IMG/VR virus record: IMGVR_UViG_3300042691_005946
Location: 1 to 33,792 of that record
Origin: a virus
DNA: 33,792 nt
Strand: one strand, 5' to 3'
A program made the translations under genes and the position numbers. The notes beneath the pieces were generated by a model. It searched no databases, had not been told where the DNA came from, and saw only the letters and a program-made list of their open reading frames with translations. Shown piece after piece: positions 1 through 33,792 of the stretch (position 1 is its first letter; the number at the start of each line of letters is the position of its first letter).

Positions 1-153
1 GGTTTTATACTGTTTTACTTTATAAAATATATAATTTAAACCATCCTATACACTTTTTAGAACGGTCCTAGGCCAAGGTAGATGTCTATGGTGTTGTAGA
101 ATGTATATATTGTAGCGTTATGGTTGTTAGAATGGTGGGGGCGTCCTACGCTA
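1..153. repeat. Terminal direct repeat, left copy
   Basis: Bases 1-153 are identical to 33640-33792 at the other end of the window. An exact end-to-end match of this size is the usual sign of a circular or circularly permuted genome whose assembly overlaps itself. A genuine short direct terminal repeat is the alternative. The repeat is non-coding and lies between convergent gene blocks. It contains short TAGAA(C/T)G repeats described separately. Confidence 0.95.
58..135 (+). repeat. Spaced TAGAAYG repeats (iteron-like)
   Basis: Three related words lie in the same orientation: TAGAACGG at 58-65, TAGAATG at 97-103 and TAGAATGG at 128-135. An inverted partner, AACCGTTCTA, lies at 33614-33623, just left of the repeat on the circle. 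Short spaced repeats in a non-coding gap resemble replication-initiator or packaging-protein sites. The copies are short and degenerate, so the functional reading is weak. Confidence 0.35.
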
Positions 154-245: not shown

Positions 246-764
246 TTAGTCCAAATAACTATATCGACCTTTTTTAATGCGATATTTAATTGTATCTGGG
301 TGACAGCCCAAGGCTTCTCCAGCCTTATAGATAGATTCAAAGATTCCTTGATCTGTCTGCACTCTGCGTTGAGTCTTTGCCCACCTAGCACGAGCACTTG
401 CTTTCATTTTTTCTATTGTTATTTCACTGTGTTTCTCGATATAACCGAAAAGGCGATTACGTTCTTCAATTCTACCTTCATTTTTCAACTGTTCACCTAA
501 TTTTTTCCGTTTTAGACTACCTTTTCTGTTAGCCTCTAACCAATTAGGATCTTTACTTAATTCTAAATTTTTTTCTGTTACTTTTTCAATCCAATCTCGA
601 CGTCCTGCAAGTTTTCTATTTCTTATTGTGCTTTGTTTTCGGTAATCATCTGATGTTTTGTCATAGGATGATATACGAGCAACAACTTGTCTAGGTCTTA
701 GTTCTGTTAAAGGACTATCTTTCTTAGCATCTTCAATTAATTGTTGCAATGTTTTATTTGACAT
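246..764 (-). CDS. NUMOD1-type DNA-binding protein, no nuclease domain seen
   Basis: The protein has 172 residues. The last ~37 (about 136-172) match the NUMOD1 pattern of homing endonucleases: a segment around FESIYKAGEALG, then an H-x-DTI-x-YRIKKGRY helix-turn-helix. The middle (about 45-95) is rich in Arg/Lys/Asn, with DPNWLEANRKGSLKRK resembling NUMOD3-like repeats. No HNH, GIY-YIG or LAGLIDADG motif is visible. It is therefore probably a DNA-binding protein left from, or derived from, a homing endonuclease. It could regulate transcription or bind the adjacent repeat-rich gap. It is last in the leftward operon and overlaps the ATPase gene by 11 bases. Confidence 0.7.
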   Translation of the reverse strand: MSNKTLQQLIEDAKKDSPLTELRPRQVVARISSYDKTSDDYRKQSTIRNRKLAGRRDWIEKVTEKNLELSKDPNWLEANRKGSLKRKKLGEQLKNEGRIEERNRLFGYIEKHSEITIEKMKASARARWAKTQRRVQTDQGIFESIYKAGEALGCHPDTIKYRIKKGRYSYLD

Positions 765-1620
765 ATTCTTGTTCCCAAATGTCTAAGTAATTATTAGGAT
801 ATTGAACAATTTTTTTAGTCATTTTTTCTATGATACTGAGATTTCTTTCTGTTATGCCTTTATCCCATTTTTGATAACACCAAAGCAGAATTTGTTCTTT
901 GTGTGCTTGTTTTATACCTGGGAAATGTTTTTCACAAATATGTTCATTAAGCACCACATCTGCCACATAACCCCAAAGTTCTAAACTTGGCATTTCTATT
1001 TCTTTGTATTCTGTTCTGCGACGTATTGCATAACGACTATTATATTTTGACCATTTTGGGCTACCATCTTCTTGTGCTTCTACTTCATCTACTGTGTGGA
1101 GATGACAATTAGTCAAAGTAATAAAAGTTACGTTTTTTACATCTATATCCAAACCTGCTCGTGCATCATCTGCAAAACTTTGCACTGCCAGCCATTGTGT
1201 GTCACTACAAAGTGGTCGTAGACTACGATAGTTTTTTCCGTAGCGTAGAATTCTAGTGTCGTCAAACATTTTCTTAGTGGTGTTAATTATCTTATCTTCA
1301 AACAATACATCACAATCATCATTAACAACAACCAATTTATTCTGCGGACCACCATTAAGGTATATGGCAGTTGTTATATCTAAAAAATAACCAAAAAACC
1401 CATTATCGCCTTTAAAAATCAAAGGAGGATTAGTCATTCGGTTTATAGCCAAATCCATTTCATAACTTTTACCCAAACCAGGCAAACTCGAAATAATAAA
1501 GTTATCACCAAATTGGTTATTGTTAAGGGCTTGATCAATTTCATTTTTCAAAGTTTGTCTATGAATTTGACCTTTTTTGATTAAAAATAATTGATCTGTG
1601 TTAAAAACCTGAATAGTCAT
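754..1620 (-). CDS. AAA+ family P-loop ATPase
   Basis: The protein has 288 residues. Walker A is SLPGLGKS at residues 45-52, and a Walker B-like strand LVVVNDDCD spans about 96-104. The acidic pair after a hydrophobic strand, followed by a segment with Arg/Lys (about 115-130), resembles phage AAA+ ATPases of the 'DDCD...' type, often found with replication genes. The role is unknown: helicase loading, origin remodelling or DNA transposition-like functions are possible. It is the only clear P-loop ATPase besides the large terminase. Its start overlaps the lipoprotein stop by four bases, and its end overlaps the NUMOD gene, so the three are probably co-translated. Confidence 0.8.
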   Translation of the reverse strand: MTIQVFNTDQLFLIKKGQIHRQTLKNEIDQALNNNQFGDNFIISSLPGLGKSYEMDLAINRMTNPPLIFKGDNGFFGYFLDITTAIYLNGGPQNKLVVVNDDCDVLFEDKIINTTKKMFDDTRILRYGKNYRSLRPLCSDTQWLAVQSFADDARAGLDIDVKNVTFITLTNCHLHTVDEVEAQEDGSPKWSKYNSRYAIRRRTEYKEIEMPSLELWGYVADVVLNEHICEKHFPGIKQAHKEQILLWCYQKWDKGITERNLSIIEKMTKKIVQYPNNYLDIWEQEYVK

Positions 1621-28902: not shown

Positions 28903-29122
28903 GCATTTACATTGTCAAGATATAACACTAAAATGGTGGGGATCTCGACTGCGATGTTATTGCTCTACACATCAAAAATGGCTTCACACATTGTCAGAGT
29001 CTGAAACTACGTGGATGATGAACAATTATCCATATGATGTAGAACCAGAAATTCCCAGCCAAGATAAAATAAGAAGAATTCGAGATGAAGTTAGACAAAG
29101 ACAAGCAGCCTTATCAACCTAA
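28871..29122 (+). CDS. Small protein with a possible zinc site
   Basis: The protein has 83 residues, with GGAGA upstream. The N-terminal H12-x-H14-C15 and C29-x-C31-x2-H34, joined by WWGSRLRCYCSTH, could bind zinc. The C-terminal part is acidic then basic (DKIRRIRDEVRQRQAA). It lies between the basic protein and the polymerase-like gene, with 32- and 38-base overlaps, so it is probably translated with them. No family is recognised; DNA binding is a reasonable guess. Confidence 0.65.
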   Translation: MINLEDNQARKHLHCQDITLKWWGSRLRCYCSTHQKWLHTLSESETTWMMNNYPYDVEPEIPSQDKIRRIRDEVRQRQAALST

Positions 29123-30215
29123 CTTTAATGATCCAAGAGTAAGAAATAGATCTATTAGAGCCATAGGTTTTGTGTGTGGTGTAATGAGCCCGACTAAGAG
29201 CCAAAGTTGGAGTTCAAGATATATTGATAGATATTTAGGAAAAAGCAATAATCCATTGAGTCGCTATCTCAGAGAGAATTTGTTAATTGTGACAGATGAA
29301 TTTTATAGATATCACTCAAGTGCAAATAAATGCAAAGAATATAGATTAAATCAAAGAGGTTTGAAATCTCTTAGAGATTTAATGAAAATCAATAACAGCA
29401 TAACATACCCTAGTGTGCTACAAGTCGTTCAAAGTGATCACTCACAGGAACTGGCCACAGGTAATTTTCAGTATGAAGATAAATCCAATAGACTTTGGCA
29501 TCCTTTACAGCGATATAGGCGACAATACAAAAGCCAAATACTAGCCGATCACGGCTATATTCATCAATATGACATAAGCACCTGTGCTCCAACTTTAATA
29601 CATCAATATAGTCGAATGATTCCTCAAATAATCGATTATAGAGGACAATGGCTGCAAGGACCAATGGATTTACATCTATTTGCTCTTACTAGATATCTCA
29701 AAAACAAGAATAAGATTCGTAAAGAAATAGCCAAGGCAATTGAATTGCCTCAAGAAGCCGTAAAAGAGATAATCAATGCTTTATTTGCAGGTGCTATCAT
29801 ATCAAATAATAATCATTCGGATATCTATCAGATAGTAAATGCGGATCAGGCTCGCATTGTTTGGCTTAAACAAGATCCCTACATACAGGAATTAGTATCA
29901 GACATAAAGATCTGTTGGGAATATATTCGTCCTGTTATGTCAGTTCGAACTAAAACAACAAAGACAGGACAAGTAAGACGACTTCCGATTACTTGCAAAC
30001 AGAAGTGGTCACTTTACTTCGAACTAGAAAGATCTGTAATAAATTCAGTGAGAGATTATTTAGAGATGAATTCAATGAGATATTTTTTAGAGCACGATGG
30101 ATGGAGTTCAGATAGAGAAATTGATACAGAGGAATTGATAAAATATGTTAATACAAATACTGGGTTTGATTTGAGATTTGAATATGAGATTAAACAATAT
30201 AGTAACATACCCTAG
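29085..30215 (+). CDS. Minimal polymerase-like protein with family A palm motifs
   Basis: The protein has 376 residues. Motif A is YDISTCAPT with D163; motif B is AVKEIINALFAGA with K227; motif C is LEHDGW with H337 and D338. The D-to-D spacing is 175 residues, close to E. coli Pol I (177) and T7 DNA polymerase (179). Motif B keeps the Lys and the late Gly (236) but lacks the Tyr and the leading Arg. Position 168, where DNA polymerases carry the Glu steric gate, is Ala, which is more like T7 RNA polymerase. Residues about 40-100 look like a winged helix (PLSRYLRENLLIVTDEF, then CKEYRLNQRGL). No exonuclease or thumb is visible. It could be a minimal DNA polymerase, a primase or an RNA polymerase. 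Confidence 0.55.
   Translation: MKLDKDKQPYQPNFNDPRVRNRSIRAIGFVCGVMSPTKSQSWSSRYIDRYLGKSNNPLSRYLRENLLIVTDEFYRYHSSANKCKEYRLNQRGLKSLRDLMKINNSITYPSVLQVVQSDHSQELATGNFQYEDKSNRLWHPLQRYRRQYKSQILADHGYIHQYDISTCAPTLIHQYSRMIPQIIDYRGQWLQGPMDLHLFALTRYLKNKNKIRKEIAKAIELPQEAVKEIINALFAGAIISNNNHSDIYQIVNADQARIVWLKQDPYIQELVSDIKICWEYIRPVMSVRTKTTKTGQVRRLPITCKQKWSLYFELERSVINSVRDYLEMNSMRYFLEHDGWSSDREIDTEELIKYVNTNTGFDLRFEYEIKQYSNIP
29401..29421 (+). repeat. 21-bp direct repeat, inner copy
   Basis: A 21-base word, TAACATACCC followed by TAGTGTGCTAC, occurs here and again at 30203-30223. This copy lies inside the polymerase-like gene at about codon 106, just before the palm-coding part. Both copies are exact. Confidence 0.9.
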
Positions 30216-30223
30216 TGTGCTAC
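30203..30223 (+). repeat. 21-bp direct repeat, outer copy
   Basis: This copy is identical to 29401-29421 and spans the stop codon of the polymerase-like gene (TAG at 30213-30215). It is read in another frame than the first copy, so the identity is not due to protein conservation. The centre-to-centre distance is 802 bases. Confidence 0.9.
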
Positions 30224-30233
30224 TTCTTTTGAG

Positions 30234-30496: not shown

Positions 30497-31465
30497 ATGA
30501 AAGGTAAAGACGACGACAGTGGTTTCAAGTGGGGACCATTTAATATAATAGGTCCCAAACCCTGGCGATTAAAGATAGTGCCTTGGCAGGGTAGTGTCGT
30601 CTATCCTTATAGTAATCCTGCATTTAGAGCCAAAGTAAGTCATGGCCCTCATCAGTTTGACCCCGATATGCCTGTTATATGTAAGGGCAATAATATGTCG
30701 GACTTTACGCATCCTGATACTTATCCTGATCATACAGAATGGTATTATTGGGACAATAGTCTACTTCCACAATTTATGACCAACTGTGCTGCTAATCCTC
30801 GAGGTGAGAAGGTATGGACACGTTTGGTATATAGAGGAATTTTTCCTGGCAGATATCGAGGCACTGAACAAGAATTAGAGCAAAGAGAACGGGAGATCAA
30901 CGACCTAATTCGTCGACTGGCCAATGGTGTTGCTTATCGTTGGCAGGACATTGTGCGTATAGATTATATAGAATATAACCCACGTCCTCGAATATTGTTA
31001 TGCTTGCCCAGTGCAGACATACCCTGGCACTACTATAAGCAGCCAATGAATCAAATTATAGATACTATAAGACAAATTGCAGACTACCGAGGTTTGCAAC
31101 TGGACATAAGACACAAACCTGCAAGACGGAATAGATTGGGACAGGCCAGTATAGACTATCAACTGGAACAGGGACAATACCTAGCAGTTATAGGCATACA
31201 CAGTGCCATTGGTGCAGAAGTTGTAGCACGAGGCGTTCCCTATGTCTCACTAGGTCAGCACAGCCTAGCAGATCTTGCCTACACGCTAGAGGATCTAGCC
31301 AATCTAGACCTAACGCCTAGACCCCAAGAGCAGGTATATCAAAGACTGAGACAATTATTATTACTAACTAGATCAAAACCCTTAGAACTAATATCAGGCA
31401 CATGGAGCCTAGATAATTATGAAAAATTATTTGAACCCCTAACCAATTGGAGAATAGAACTATGA
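30497..31465 (+). CDS. GT-B / KpsS-like glycosyltransferase
   Basis: The protein has 322 residues. The C-terminal half has RILLCLPSADIPWHYYKQP, LDIRHKPARRNRLGQ and GIHSAIGAEVVARGVPYVSLG (about 232-252), the donor-site layout of KpsC/KpsS-like and related GT-B capsule enzymes ('SS...EAL..G.PV...G'). The N-terminal ~100 residues have no clear family. It is the first of a cassette of surface-sugar genes. It may add Kdo- or other sugar residues to capsule or LPS, or glycosylate virion proteins. Confidence 0.65.
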   Translation: MKGKDDDSGFKWGPFNIIGPKPWRLKIVPWQGSVVYPYSNPAFRAKVSHGPHQFDPDMPVICKGNNMSDFTHPDTYPDHTEWYYWDNSLLPQFMTNCAANPRGEKVWTRLVYRGIFPGRYRGTEQELEQREREINDLIRRLANGVAYRWQDIVRIDYIEYNPRPRILLCLPSADIPWHYYKQPMNQIIDTIRQIADYRGLQLDIRHKPARRNRLGQASIDYQLEQGQYLAVIGIHSAIGAEVVARGVPYVSLGQHSLADLAYTLEDLANLDLTPRPQEQVYQRLRQLLLLTRSKPLELISGTWSLDNYEKLFEPLTNWRIEL

Positions 31466-32088
31466 AATTAATAAGAGGTTGGTATATGCCCGACCACGAA
31501 ACAGAACTACTACACGCCACTACAGTGCTAAAAGAAACTGGCTATCAAATTAATCAACGTCGTTGGAGCCTAGAAGGATTACAACAACATAGAACAGCCT
31601 TAGACATTGGAGCACACGTGGGACTTTGGGCCAGAGACTTATGCGAACTATTTGAACGAGTCATAGCCTTTGAACCACATCCAGAACATAGACAATGCCT
31701 AGCCATGAACGTTAAGGCACCAAACTTAGAAATTGTAGCAGCCGCAGTGGGTGAGCGTGATGGCACATGTAGTCTACAAATATATCCAGGACGCAGTGGC
31801 CATACACATAGAAAGGAGGGCACAGATGTCACATTGATTAGCATAGACACCTATGCACCTGAACAGGTCGACTACATTAAGATAGACGTAGAAGGATTTG
31901 AATACGAAGTCTTACAGGGCGCTAGAGAAACCATCATGCGTGACCACCCCCGCATTGTTATAGAACAAAAACAACAACATCATACAACAGATCAAGAACG
32001 CTATCGGGCCAGTGACTTATTGATATCTTGGGGTTACCAAAGACTACGACATCACGGTGACGATCACGTGTTTGGATGGAGCCAATGA
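31462..32088 (+). CDS. FkbM family methyltransferase
   Basis: The protein has 208 residues from ATG 31462, which overlaps the preceding TGA (ATGA). AdoMet motif I is ALDIGAHVGLWA (about 46-57), followed by VIAFEPHPEHRQCLAMN. The C-terminal motif VDYIKIDVEGFEYEVLQGA is the FkbM signature. Such enzymes O-methylate sugars or other small groups, often on surface glycans. It lies between two glycosyltransferase-like genes and probably decorates the same product. Confidence 0.92.
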   Translation: MKLIRGWYMPDHETELLHATTVLKETGYQINQRRWSLEGLQQHRTALDIGAHVGLWARDLCELFERVIAFEPHPEHRQCLAMNVKAPNLEIVAAAVGERDGTCSLQIYPGRSGHTHRKEGTDVTLISIDTYAPEQVDYIKIDVEGFEYEVLQGARETIMRDHPRIVIEQKQQHHTTDQERYRASDLLISWGYQRLRHHGDDHVFGWSQ

Positions 32089-32258
32089 AGATACAGTTAT
32101 ACTGGGATCAAGTGCCCACACATTGGCGTCCCGAAGACTATGTGGTCTTAGAAGATTATTGGGATGACAGTGAAGAATGGTTTGTTGCACGAGTAGACAG
32201 TGAATTCCTTAAACAGGAAATACTGCTACGTTATAGAGAATTTATAGTATGGGAATAG
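32085..32258 (+). CDS. Small acidic hypothetical protein in the glycan cassette
   Basis: The protein has 57 residues from ATG 32085, overlapping the FkbM TGA. It is Trp/Glu/Asp-rich (YVVLEDYWDDSEEWFVARVDS) with no signal peptide. No family is recognised. Overlaps on both sides, including ten bases with the GT9 gene, suggest coupled translation and a role tied to the sugar enzymes. Confidence 0.65.
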   Translation: MKIQLYWDQVPTHWRPEDYVVLEDYWDDSEEWFVARVDSEFLKQEILLRYREFIVWE

Positions 32259-33019
32259 GTGACGATGTCATTTGGTTGGGTGAAGCCTGGCATAGATATC
32301 AAACTACAGGGCAAAAAAGTAGACCCACTAGAGATGGAGTAGCCCACACATTCAAAGAGGCCTGGGCTAACTGTGATTACGTGGACATGCACGAGGGCGT
32401 GCCACTAGAAGAACGAACTAATGGAGTTAGGCCATATGCTGCCAGTATAGACTATGTGTGCAAGCCAGCAAGATTTGTTCTCAGTGAAGAGGAACAACGA
32501 CAAGCAGATCTTTTCCATCGCAATGAAGACTATTGGCTGATCTGTCCCGACGTTAAACAACGACTACACTATAAGAATAAAGATTGGGGTTGGCGCAATT
32601 GGGTTGACCTCGTGGGCCTAATAGGACAAGACAGACCCCAACAGCGATTAGTTAGACTACATCCCCCTACTAGTGTAATACAAATAGCCTATGTAGAGAA
32701 TATAACAACAAGATCAGTGCGTGATATGATCACTTTAAGTAGTAGGGCCAGTTTAATAATTACAACAGAAGGTGCTTGGCATCATATAGCAGCAGCACAT
32801 GGTATTCCTGCTGTTGTGCTCTACGGACATTGCACTAGTCCCCACCCCTCCCCTAAGCATACGCATAGTGGCACAGGATATTTAGGACAATGTAATATAG
32901 TAGATGCTACTGGCCCCTGCTATGATACTAAGGGAACCTGCACAATCTGCCCTGAAGTATGGCGACAAATAAAGCCTAAACTAGTTTATGAAAGAATCAA
33001 AGAATATGTACGAACATAG
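32249..33019 (+). CDS. Glycosyltransferase family 9 (heptosyltransferase-like)
   Basis: The protein has 256 residues. The C-terminal domain has TTEGAWHHIAAAHGIPAVVLYG (about 171-192), the GT9 signature ('s.dsg..HlA.a.g.p.v.lfG'), followed by a Cys-containing end (GPCYDTKGTCTICP) like the metal- or disulfide-bearing tail of heptosyltransferases. The N-terminal half is shorter than in bacterial WaaC/WaaF (~320 residues). It probably transfers a sugar to host LPS core or to a phage structure. Confidence 0.82.
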   Translation: MGIGDDVIWLGEAWHRYQTTGQKSRPTRDGVAHTFKEAWANCDYVDMHEGVPLEERTNGVRPYAASIDYVCKPARFVLSEEEQRQADLFHRNEDYWLICPDVKQRLHYKNKDWGWRNWVDLVGLIGQDRPQQRLVRLHPPTSVIQIAYVENITTRSVRDMITLSSRASLIITTEGAWHHIAAAHGIPAVVLYGHCTSPHPSPKHTHSGTGYLGQCNIVDATGPCYDTKGTCTICPEVWRQIKPKLVYERIKEYVRT

Positions 33020-33639: not shown

Positions 33640-33792
33640 GGTTTTATACTGTTTTACTTTATAAAATATATAATTTAAACCATCCTATACACTTTTTAGA
33701 ACGGTCCTAGGCCAAGGTAGATGTCTATGGTGTTGTAGAATGTATATATTGTAGCGTTATGGTTGTTAGAATGGTGGGGGCGTCCTACGCTA
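33640..33792. repeat. Terminal direct repeat, right copy
   Basis: Identical to bases 1-153; see the left copy. On a circular genome this region and 1-245 form one non-coding gap of about 430 bases between the end of the rightward cassette and the end of the leftward operon. Confidence 0.95.

What the first reader, a model, noticed from the sequence alone, without database searches (positions are those of the whole stretch)
29085..30215. Compact polymerase-like protein: family A palm motifs behind a possible winged helix
Seen: D163 in a YDIS motif, K227 and G236 in a motif B-like helix, and H337-D338 in a motif C-like HDGW. The spacing of the two Asp residues (175) matches Pol I and T7 DNA polymerase (177-179). 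Known: family A DNA polymerases have a Glu steric gate five residues after the first Asp; here it is Ala, more like T7 RNA polymerase (Gly). Inferred: a 376-residue protein without thumb or exonuclease may be a self-standing primase, RNA polymerase or minimal replicase. It may start at sites bound by its own N-terminal domain. It is the only polymerase-like gene in the genome.
Basis: partly seen in the sequence, partly recalled or inferred. Interest (0 to 1): 0.82.

Follow-up and report, generated by a model that had tools for sequence, protein, structure and literature searches.

The report
Phage mini-polymerase that marks its origin
A small, previously unclassified phage enzyme joins a stripped-down DNA/RNA polymerase core to a DNA-reading domain, and its key reading residues change in step with a short DNA repeat in and beside its own gene, so it probably starts copying the phage genome there by itself.

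Summary
ORF 29085-30215 (376 aa) folds (pLDDT 91) into an N-terminal winged helix plus a family A palm. T7 DNA polymerase is the best PDB match (Z 12.6). D163, K227, H337 and D338 are invariant in 67 diverse homologues; the steric-gate Glu is Ala in 63 of 67. No Pfam or PHROG family fits. No PolA, PolB, DnaG, DnaB or D5 gene was found in the window or 22 related ~30-40 kb records.

New here: the gene carries a DNA element, TACCCTA[GT]TGT-N5-A[AT][GC]T. One copy lies inside the gene, in the linker between the two domains; a second lies at the stop codon, 802 nt away. Thirty-four loci show such a pair. The variable bases match within a genome but differ between genomes. They co-vary with the N-cap of the predicted recognition helix: residue 56 sets base 8 (20 of 20 nearest-relative pairs concordant, p 6e-6, top of over 700 tests), residue 53 sets base 7, residue 55 more weakly base 9. 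So the polymerase's own winged helix reads the element.

Most likely this is a self-targeting replication initiator-primase that makes a primer, probably RNA, at an origin in and behind its own gene. Binding is strongly supported; polymerase chemistry and origin function are inferred. Rival: a mini RNA polymerase with its own promoters.

The parts
29085..30215 (+). gene of the winged-helix/palm polymerase, 376 aa
   Evidence: ORF; homologues in about 80 virus contigs and 3 bacterial contigs
29112..29399 (+). N-terminal winged-helix domain, residues 10-105
   Evidence: AlphaFold pLDDT 88.5, H-E-H-H-E-E-H; best 50 matches are mostly winged-helix proteins (VanR, LmrR/PadR, MarR, RTP), but Z only 3.2-4.1
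29241..29252 (+). codons of residues 53-56, N-cap of the predicted recognition helix (57-66), which co-vary with the DNA element
   Evidence: residue 56 with base 8, residue 53 with base 7, residue 55 with base 9: best column of 306 each; pair test
29406..29425 (+). DNA element copy 1 (TACCCTAGTGTGCTACAAGT), inside the gene, in the linker between the domains
   Evidence: exact 21-nt repeat 29401-29421 with copy 2; motif scan
30208..30227 (+). DNA element copy 2 (TACCCTAGTGTGCTACTTCT), over the stop codon
   Evidence: exact 21-nt repeat 30203-30223, spacing 802; motif scan
29460..30203 (+). family A-like palm and fingers domain, residues 126-373
   Evidence: VIA-align Z 12.6 to T7 DNA polymerase; Foldseek E 8.7e-4
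29490..29510 (+). R136-LWHPL-Q142, counterpart of the Pol I TGR...NLQ motif
   Evidence: R136 and Q142 67/67; register in profile alignment
29568..29588 (+). motif A, Y162-D163-ISTC-A168; A168 in the steric-gate position
   Evidence: Y162 and D163 67/67, A168 63/67; register with T7 D475/E480
29763..29792 (+). motif B, K227-EIINALFA-G236
   Evidence: K227 67/67, G236 66/67; register with T7 K522
30003..30029 (+). K307-xxx-Y311-xxx-E315 helix, likely counterpart of Pol I motif R841-N845-Q849
   Evidence: Y311 and E315 67/67, K307 62/67 plus 5 Arg; counterpart proposed from established Pol I motifs
30093..30104 (+). motif C, H337-D338-G339-W340
   Evidence: H337 and D338 67/67

Best explanation
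The protein is a replication initiator and primase in one chain. (1) Its C-terminal palm is an intact, minimal family A polymerase (fold and invariant residues shown; activity inferred). (2) Its N-terminal winged helix binds a DNA element present in two or more copies at its own gene, one usually in the linker between the domains and one or more at the gene's end; residues 53, 55 and 56 at the start of the recognition helix read bases 7, 9 and 8 of the element (shown by covariation, not by experiment). (3) The element is the phage origin: the bound protein opens or meets single-stranded DNA and makes a primer, probably RNA because the Glu that excludes ribose is Ala (inferred). (4) The host replisome, or the enzyme itself, extends it; these phages carry none of the replicative polymerase, primase or helicase families tested (inferred). 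Separate confidences: polymerase palm 0.97; own-gene element recognised by own winged helix 0.9; origin and priming role 0.6.
For: Fold: pLDDT 91.4, pTM 0.85; T7 DNA polymerase Z 12.6 over 262 residues, Pol theta/nu, Klenow and Taq 11-12, yeast mitochondrial RNAP 10.9; virophage polymerases among the best viral matches. Catalytic residues 67/67. Element: 34 loci with an exact 14-45 nt repeat pair linking gene interior and gene end; relaxed motif in 45 loci near the gene, and 0 plus-strand and 4 minus-strand matches in 1.03 Mb elsewhere in the same loci; two strict scans of 2.9 million viral contigs gave 16 stretches with two or more copies and all 16 hold the gene (L044 was already a known locus). 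Variable bases identical within genomes 146/150 against 68 after shuffling. Covariation: residue 56 to base 8 z 13.3, leave-one-out 36/39; residue 53 to base 7 z 10.0, 34/39; best of 306 columns. Disjoint nearest-relative pairs: residue 56 and base 8 change together in 11, neither in 9, discordant 0, p 6e-6; next best column 0.018. Loci not used to find the rule fit it: L244, L239, L060, L065, L053, and the downstream copy of L041. A Roseateles chromosome has one in-gene and three downstream copies of a diverged element. No PolA, DnaB, PolB, D5 or DnaG in 22 related ~30-40 kb records.
Against: No experiment. Nothing here shows replication starts at the element: GC skew is uninformative and no AT-rich opening site stands out. 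About half of the more distant homologues have no recognisable pair. The winged-helix match is weak, Z at most 4.1. L036, L043 and L038 break the residue 56/base 8 rule. Genes downstream mostly run the same way as the element, which a promoter would also explain.
Confidence: 0.6

Rival explanations
1. It is a minimal single-subunit RNA polymerase whose winged helix recognises its own promoters; the elements are promoters, transcription being the main product and replication priming at most a by-product.
For: Ala in place of the ribose-excluding Glu, as Gly in T7 RNAP (T7 RNAP from general knowledge); fold match to yeast mitochondrial RNAP Z 10.9; elements nearly always point in the direction of the gene, and genes downstream are co-oriented in 63 of 68 loci.
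Against: Only two copies in the whole genome, both at the polymerase gene, one in the middle of it. Upstream genes are co-oriented too in 39 of 52. Inverted second copies in L048 to L050. In L061 and L084 the downstream region is mostly on the other strand. The Tyr of T7 RNAP motif B is not conserved (A235 variable).
Confidence: 0.2
2. It is a TV-Pol-like DNA prim-pol that carries out bulk replication, not only priming.
For: Viral fold matches include virophage TV-Pols; no polymerase of the tested families in these genomes.
Against: No proofreading domain, truncated thumb and missing dNTP gate fit poorly with copying 34 kb; none of the D5 helicase that goes with viral TV-Pols (PMC2579912); RxxxK motif absent.
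Confidence: 0.15
3. The repeats are recombination or gene-conversion tracts with no binding role, for example remnants of module exchange.
For: Copies in a genome are identical over 20-45 nt even where bases are random between genomes.
Against: Bases 7 and 8 are predicted by residues encoded about 150 nt away from the in-gene copy; copies may be inverted or tandem; homogenisation alone predicts no such code.
Confidence: 0.04
4. The protein is only an autoregulator, the palm being a dead fold.
For: Winged-helix matches are mostly repressors.
Against: Eleven palm residues, including both metal-binding Asp, are invariant in 67 homologues down to 28% identity; no element at the gene's promoter in the window.
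Confidence: 0.03

Closest known systems
TV-Pol family (virophage, transposon and SCC polymerases; PMC2579912, PMC10061031)
   Same: Minimal palm related to family A without exonuclease; beta-hairpin with an invariant Arg; two invariant Asp; proposed primases; among the best viral fold matches
   Different: No RxxxK motif, no D5 helicase partner, dNTP gate missing, own winged-helix DNA-binding domain that reads repeats in and behind the gene; no sequence-family match
CCPol-MP with Cch2 of SCCmec (PMC7581432)
   Same: A family A polymerase acting as primase at repeats just downstream of the operon
   Different: There origin binding is done by the helicase Cch2 and template grip by MP; CCPol keeps E710 and F762 counterparts and makes DNA primers. 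Here one protein carries palm and DNA-binding domain, and the gate is Ala
ColE2 Rep (PMC4538821)
   Same: Works alike if the inference holds: one initiator that binds its origin and makes the primer there
   Different: ColE2 Rep is an archaeo-eukaryotic-type primase, an unrelated family; this one has a family A palm
T7 DNA polymerase and T7/mitochondrial RNA polymerase
   Same: Palm fold and motifs A, B, C
   Different: 376 aa, no exonuclease, little or no thumb, no promoter-recognition domain of the T7 type; winged helix instead
Lambda O protein and its origin (general knowledge)
   Same: Initiator whose repeats lie inside its own gene, between the DNA-binding and C-terminal halves
   Different: Lambda O has no polymerase; here the C-terminal half is a polymerase palm
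divPolA2 of barbaviruses (PMC11348598)
   Same: Phage PolA-like palm lacking exonuclease and normal thumb, with an unrelated N-terminal domain
   Different: Those phages also encode PolB and no element is reported; kinship to the present family was not tested

Membership tests
Family A DNA polymerase (PF00476) | match to the family profile | tested here: not met
   no PF00476 match in the record; no Pfam hit over cut-off
Family A DNA polymerase (PF00476) | right-hand palm fold of the superfamily | tested here: met
   T7 DNA polymerase Z 12.6, Foldseek E 8.7e-4
Family A DNA polymerase (PF00476) | motif A Asp and motif C His-Asp, motif B Lys | tested here: met
   67/67 conserved, register
Family A DNA polymerase (PF00476) | steric-gate Glu at motif A Asp+5 | tested here: not met
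   Ala 63, Cys 3, Ser 1 of 67
TV-Pol | beta-hairpin with an absolutely conserved Arg | tested here: met
   strands 131-133 and 136-138, R136 67/67
TV-Pol | two conserved Asp in an RRM-like palm | tested here: met
TV-Pol | RxxxK motif in the fingers | tested here: not met
   residue 223, four before K227, is not Arg (E, P, V, T, L); an invariant Arg sits 15 residues before
TV-Pol | two-helix thumb | tested here: inconclusive
   one helix 108-125 before the hairpin
TV-Pol | fusion or linkage to a D5-like helicase, or to an integrase or resolvase | tested here: not met
   no D5_N in 24 records; linkage to a large serine integrase seen only in the Roseateles locus
Single-subunit RNA polymerase (T7-like) | small residue in place of the steric-gate Glu | tested here: met
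   A168
Single-subunit RNA polymerase (T7-like) | motif B Tyr (Y639 of T7 RNAP) | tested here: not met
   A235 is A, C, Q, N, S or M in nearly all of 67
Single-subunit RNA polymerase (T7-like) | promoter-dependent RNA synthesis | not testable with these tools
   needs assay
Iteron-type replication initiator (by function) | repeats of one sequence at the initiator gene | tested here: met
Iteron-type replication initiator (by function) | initiator binds the repeats | tested here: inconclusive
   strong covariation of residues 53, 55, 56 with bases 7, 9, 8; no binding experiment
Iteron-type replication initiator (by function) | replication starts at the repeats | not testable with these tools
   needs replicon assay or start-site mapping
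ColE2 Rep type origin primase | archaeo-eukaryotic primase domain | tested here: not met
   palm is family A-like; no such Pfam match

The most novel reading that the evidence does not exclude
A previously undescribed class of replication initiator: a family A palm fused to a winged helix that is the phage's own origin-recognition factor, makes RNA primers at an origin embedded in its own gene, and reads it through a simple amino-acid-to-base code (residue 56: N reads T, H/R/E read C, T reads A, D reads G; residue 53: Q/V/I read T, M reads A, K/R read C) that has been rewritten many times in evolution.
Probability: 0.5. Interest if true: 0.88.

Novelty: new variant of a known kind. Interest (0 to 1): 0.82.

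Why it matters
Known primases are of two unrelated families, with CCPol-MP and piPolB as exceptions (PMC10061031). A family A primase that finds its own origin, in one 376-residue chain and without a helicase partner that we could find, would be about the smallest such initiator known. The recognition code makes its DNA specificity predictable and testable by single substitutions, gives a way to locate origins in uncultured phages, and shows how a replicon can change its origin specificity while keeping both copies matched. It also bears on how RNA-making and DNA-making family A enzymes are related.

Tried and rejected
Pfam and PHROG searches with the window protein and with 32 homologues gave only scattered weak hits, treated as chance. 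PDB sequence searches gave nothing credible. INPHARED and PLSDB tblastn: no match. hhalign against single T7 proteins was too weak to use alone; a nine-sequence PolA alignment gave the register but only P 0.004. GC skew and AT content showed no origin signature. The repeats as plain gene-conversion tracts or recombination sites were considered and dropped after the covariation. Diversity-generating retroelement considered: copies are identical rather than changed at A, and the palm is family A. Gene orientation could not separate origin from promoter. The ATPase at 754-1620 as helicase loader: relatives in only 2 of 23 other records, so not part of the system. The independent-pairs test on well-supported branches alone was too small to reach 0.05 (4 same way, 0 opposite); the disjoint nearest-relative pair test was used as well.

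Full report
OBSERVATION. It has no Pfam or PHROG family and no match in INPHARED phages. IMG/VR gave relatives in about 80 contigs, and the GTDB genome set gave three: a contig of a Legionella bin, the chromosome of Roseateles depolymerans DSM 11813, and a bin contig. In a 67-member alignment R136, Q142, Y162, D163, R212, K227, W278, Y311, E315, H337 and D338 never vary.

FOLD. AlphaFold on 32 homologues gave pLDDT 91.4 and pTM 0.85. Foldseek's best PDB match is T7 DNA polymerase, E 8.7e-4; VIA-align gives T7 DNA polymerase Z 12.6, Pol theta, Pol nu, Klenow and Taq 11-12, yeast mitochondrial RNA polymerase 10.9. These Z values are moderate, but nearly all leading rows are one superfamily and the motifs fall in register. 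Viral models that match include virophage TV-Pols. The N-terminal 105 residues alone fold as helix-strand-helix-helix-strand-strand-helix and match winged-helix regulators weakly, Z 3-4. The winged helix is thus supported by topology, by the kind of matches, and most of all by the covariation below.

CHEMISTRY. D163+5 is Ala in 63 of 67, where T7 DNA polymerase has E480; CCPol, a family A primase that makes DNA primers, keeps the counterpart of E710 (PMC7581432). This points to ribonucleotide use, by inference only. The motif B Tyr of T7 RNA polymerase and the RxxxK of TV-Pols are not kept.

THE DNA ELEMENT. The window has an exact 21-nt repeat, TAACATACCCTAGTGTGCTAC, at 29401-29421 (in the gene) and 30203-30223 (over the stop codon) and nowhere else within 3 mismatches of its 19-nt core; shuffles give 0.01. 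The same arrangement recurs: 34 loci have such a pair, spacing 755-867, one copy in the variable linker between the two domains and one around the stop codon. Others have two or more copies behind the gene (L002, L016, L027, L029, L035, L051, L076, L081), or an inverted second copy (L048 to L050). Roseateles has one copy in the gene and three behind it, of a diverged sequence. Copies are read in different frames or are non-coding at the gene's end, so the constraint is on DNA. The motif was found near the gene in 45 loci, with 0 plus-strand and 4 minus-strand matches in 1.03 Mb elsewhere. Two strict versions scanned over 2.9 million viral contigs gave 16 stretches with two or more copies, and all 16 hold this gene. 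Both scan patterns were built from known copies, so this shows specificity, not discovery of new families.

WHY IDENTICAL COPIES. Bases 6-10 are the same in both copies of a genome in 146 of 150 comparisons, against 68 when genomes are shuffled, though bases 7 and 8 are close to random between genomes. Either something copies one into the other, or one protein must read both. The second predicts that protein residues follow the bases, and they do. Of 306 variable columns, residue 56 is best for base 8 (z 13.3; leave-one-out 36 of 39), residue 53 for base 7 (z 10.0; 34 of 39) and residue 55 for base 9 (z 5.3; Arg gives G in 5 of 5). Columns 112-113 also score, trivially, since the in-gene copy encodes them. 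Residues 53-56 are the N-cap of the predicted recognition helix, encoded about 150 nt upstream of the in-gene copy. The pairings agree with usual contacts if residues 53 and 56 read the other strand (Asn-Ade, His-Gua, Arg-Gua, Asp-Cyt, Gln-Ade; general knowledge). Relatedness was controlled by 20 disjoint nearest-relative pairs: residue 56 and base 8 change together in 11, stay together in 9, never disagree (Fisher p 6e-6), and the next best of more than 700 column-base tests is 0.018. For residue 53 alone the same test gives p 0.06 and for residue 55 p 0.11, so those two rest on the column ranking. A tree of the palm alone shows 14 changes of base 8 and 13 of residue 56; independent pairs on well-supported branches go 4 the same way, 0 opposite. 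Loci outside the discovery set fit: L244, L239, L060, L065, L053 and the downstream copy of L041; L036 and L038 do not.

CONTEXT. The window is a 33.8 kb siphophage-like genome with terminase, portal, scaffold, capsid and tape-measure genes. No PolA, PolB, DnaB, D5 or DnaG family was found in it or in 22 related records of about 30-40 kb; some of these are fragments, and divergent forms could be missed. A 101-kb record with a distant homologue does have PolB and DnaB.

MECHANISM. Binding of the element by the protein's own winged helix is strongly supported. An intact palm bound at two or more sites in and behind its own gene, in genomes with no other replication enzyme found, is best explained as an origin-specific initiator-primase, like ColE2 Rep in function (PMC4538821) and like the CCPol-MP/Cch2 module rolled into one chain (PMC7581432). 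Priming, RNA product and origin activity are inferred. The strongest rival is a mini RNA polymerase with promoters; the two could be one thing, since T7 RNA polymerase transcripts also prime T7 replication (general knowledge).

NOVELTY. Fold and mode of action each have precedents; their union in one chain, the in-gene origin and the readable specificity code were not found in the papers searched. It fails two defining features of TV-Pols and is therefore not filed there.

Noticed in passing
window 1-153 and 33640-33792: Exact 153-nt terminal repeat: the record is a complete genome of about 33.6 kb, circular or with direct terminal repeats.
   Followed up: no
window 754-1620 (-): 288-aa protein with a P-loop-like GLGKS motif, weak match to phrog_1250; 55% identical relative in the L041 genome and 30% in L059's, absent from 21 other records.
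   Followed up: partly
window 246-764 (-): 172-aa protein with weak homing-endonuclease and NUMOD-like matches next to the genome end.
   Followed up: no
window 30497-33019: Sugar-modification cluster: FkbM methyltransferase and glycosyltransferase family 9, behind the polymerase gene.
   Followed up: no
L084 8207-11217: Roseateles depolymerans chromosome: large serine integrase beside the polymerase gene, which has four copies of a diverged element (CAGCTAATGGTTACTACAAGT); an integrated element in a culturable host.
   Followed up: partly
L041 near 10295 and 11055: Two element copies differ: the downstream one fits residues K53/N56 (ACTAC), the in-gene one (CATAG) has drifted at base 7, as if only downstream copies were needed there.
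   Followed up: partly
L019 372-1061: Polymerase gene broken by a frameshift or stop after 229 aa in this contig; its two elements disagree at base 7.
   Followed up: no
element bases 11-14 in all loci: The tail of the element is AAGT, ATCT or TTCT; the middle dinucleotide switches as a unit (AG or TC), also between copies of one genome. Cause unknown.
   Followed up: no
L079 record, 101 kb: A large phage record holds a distant homologue together with PolB and DnaB genes, so the enzyme can coexist with a full replisome.
   Followed up: no
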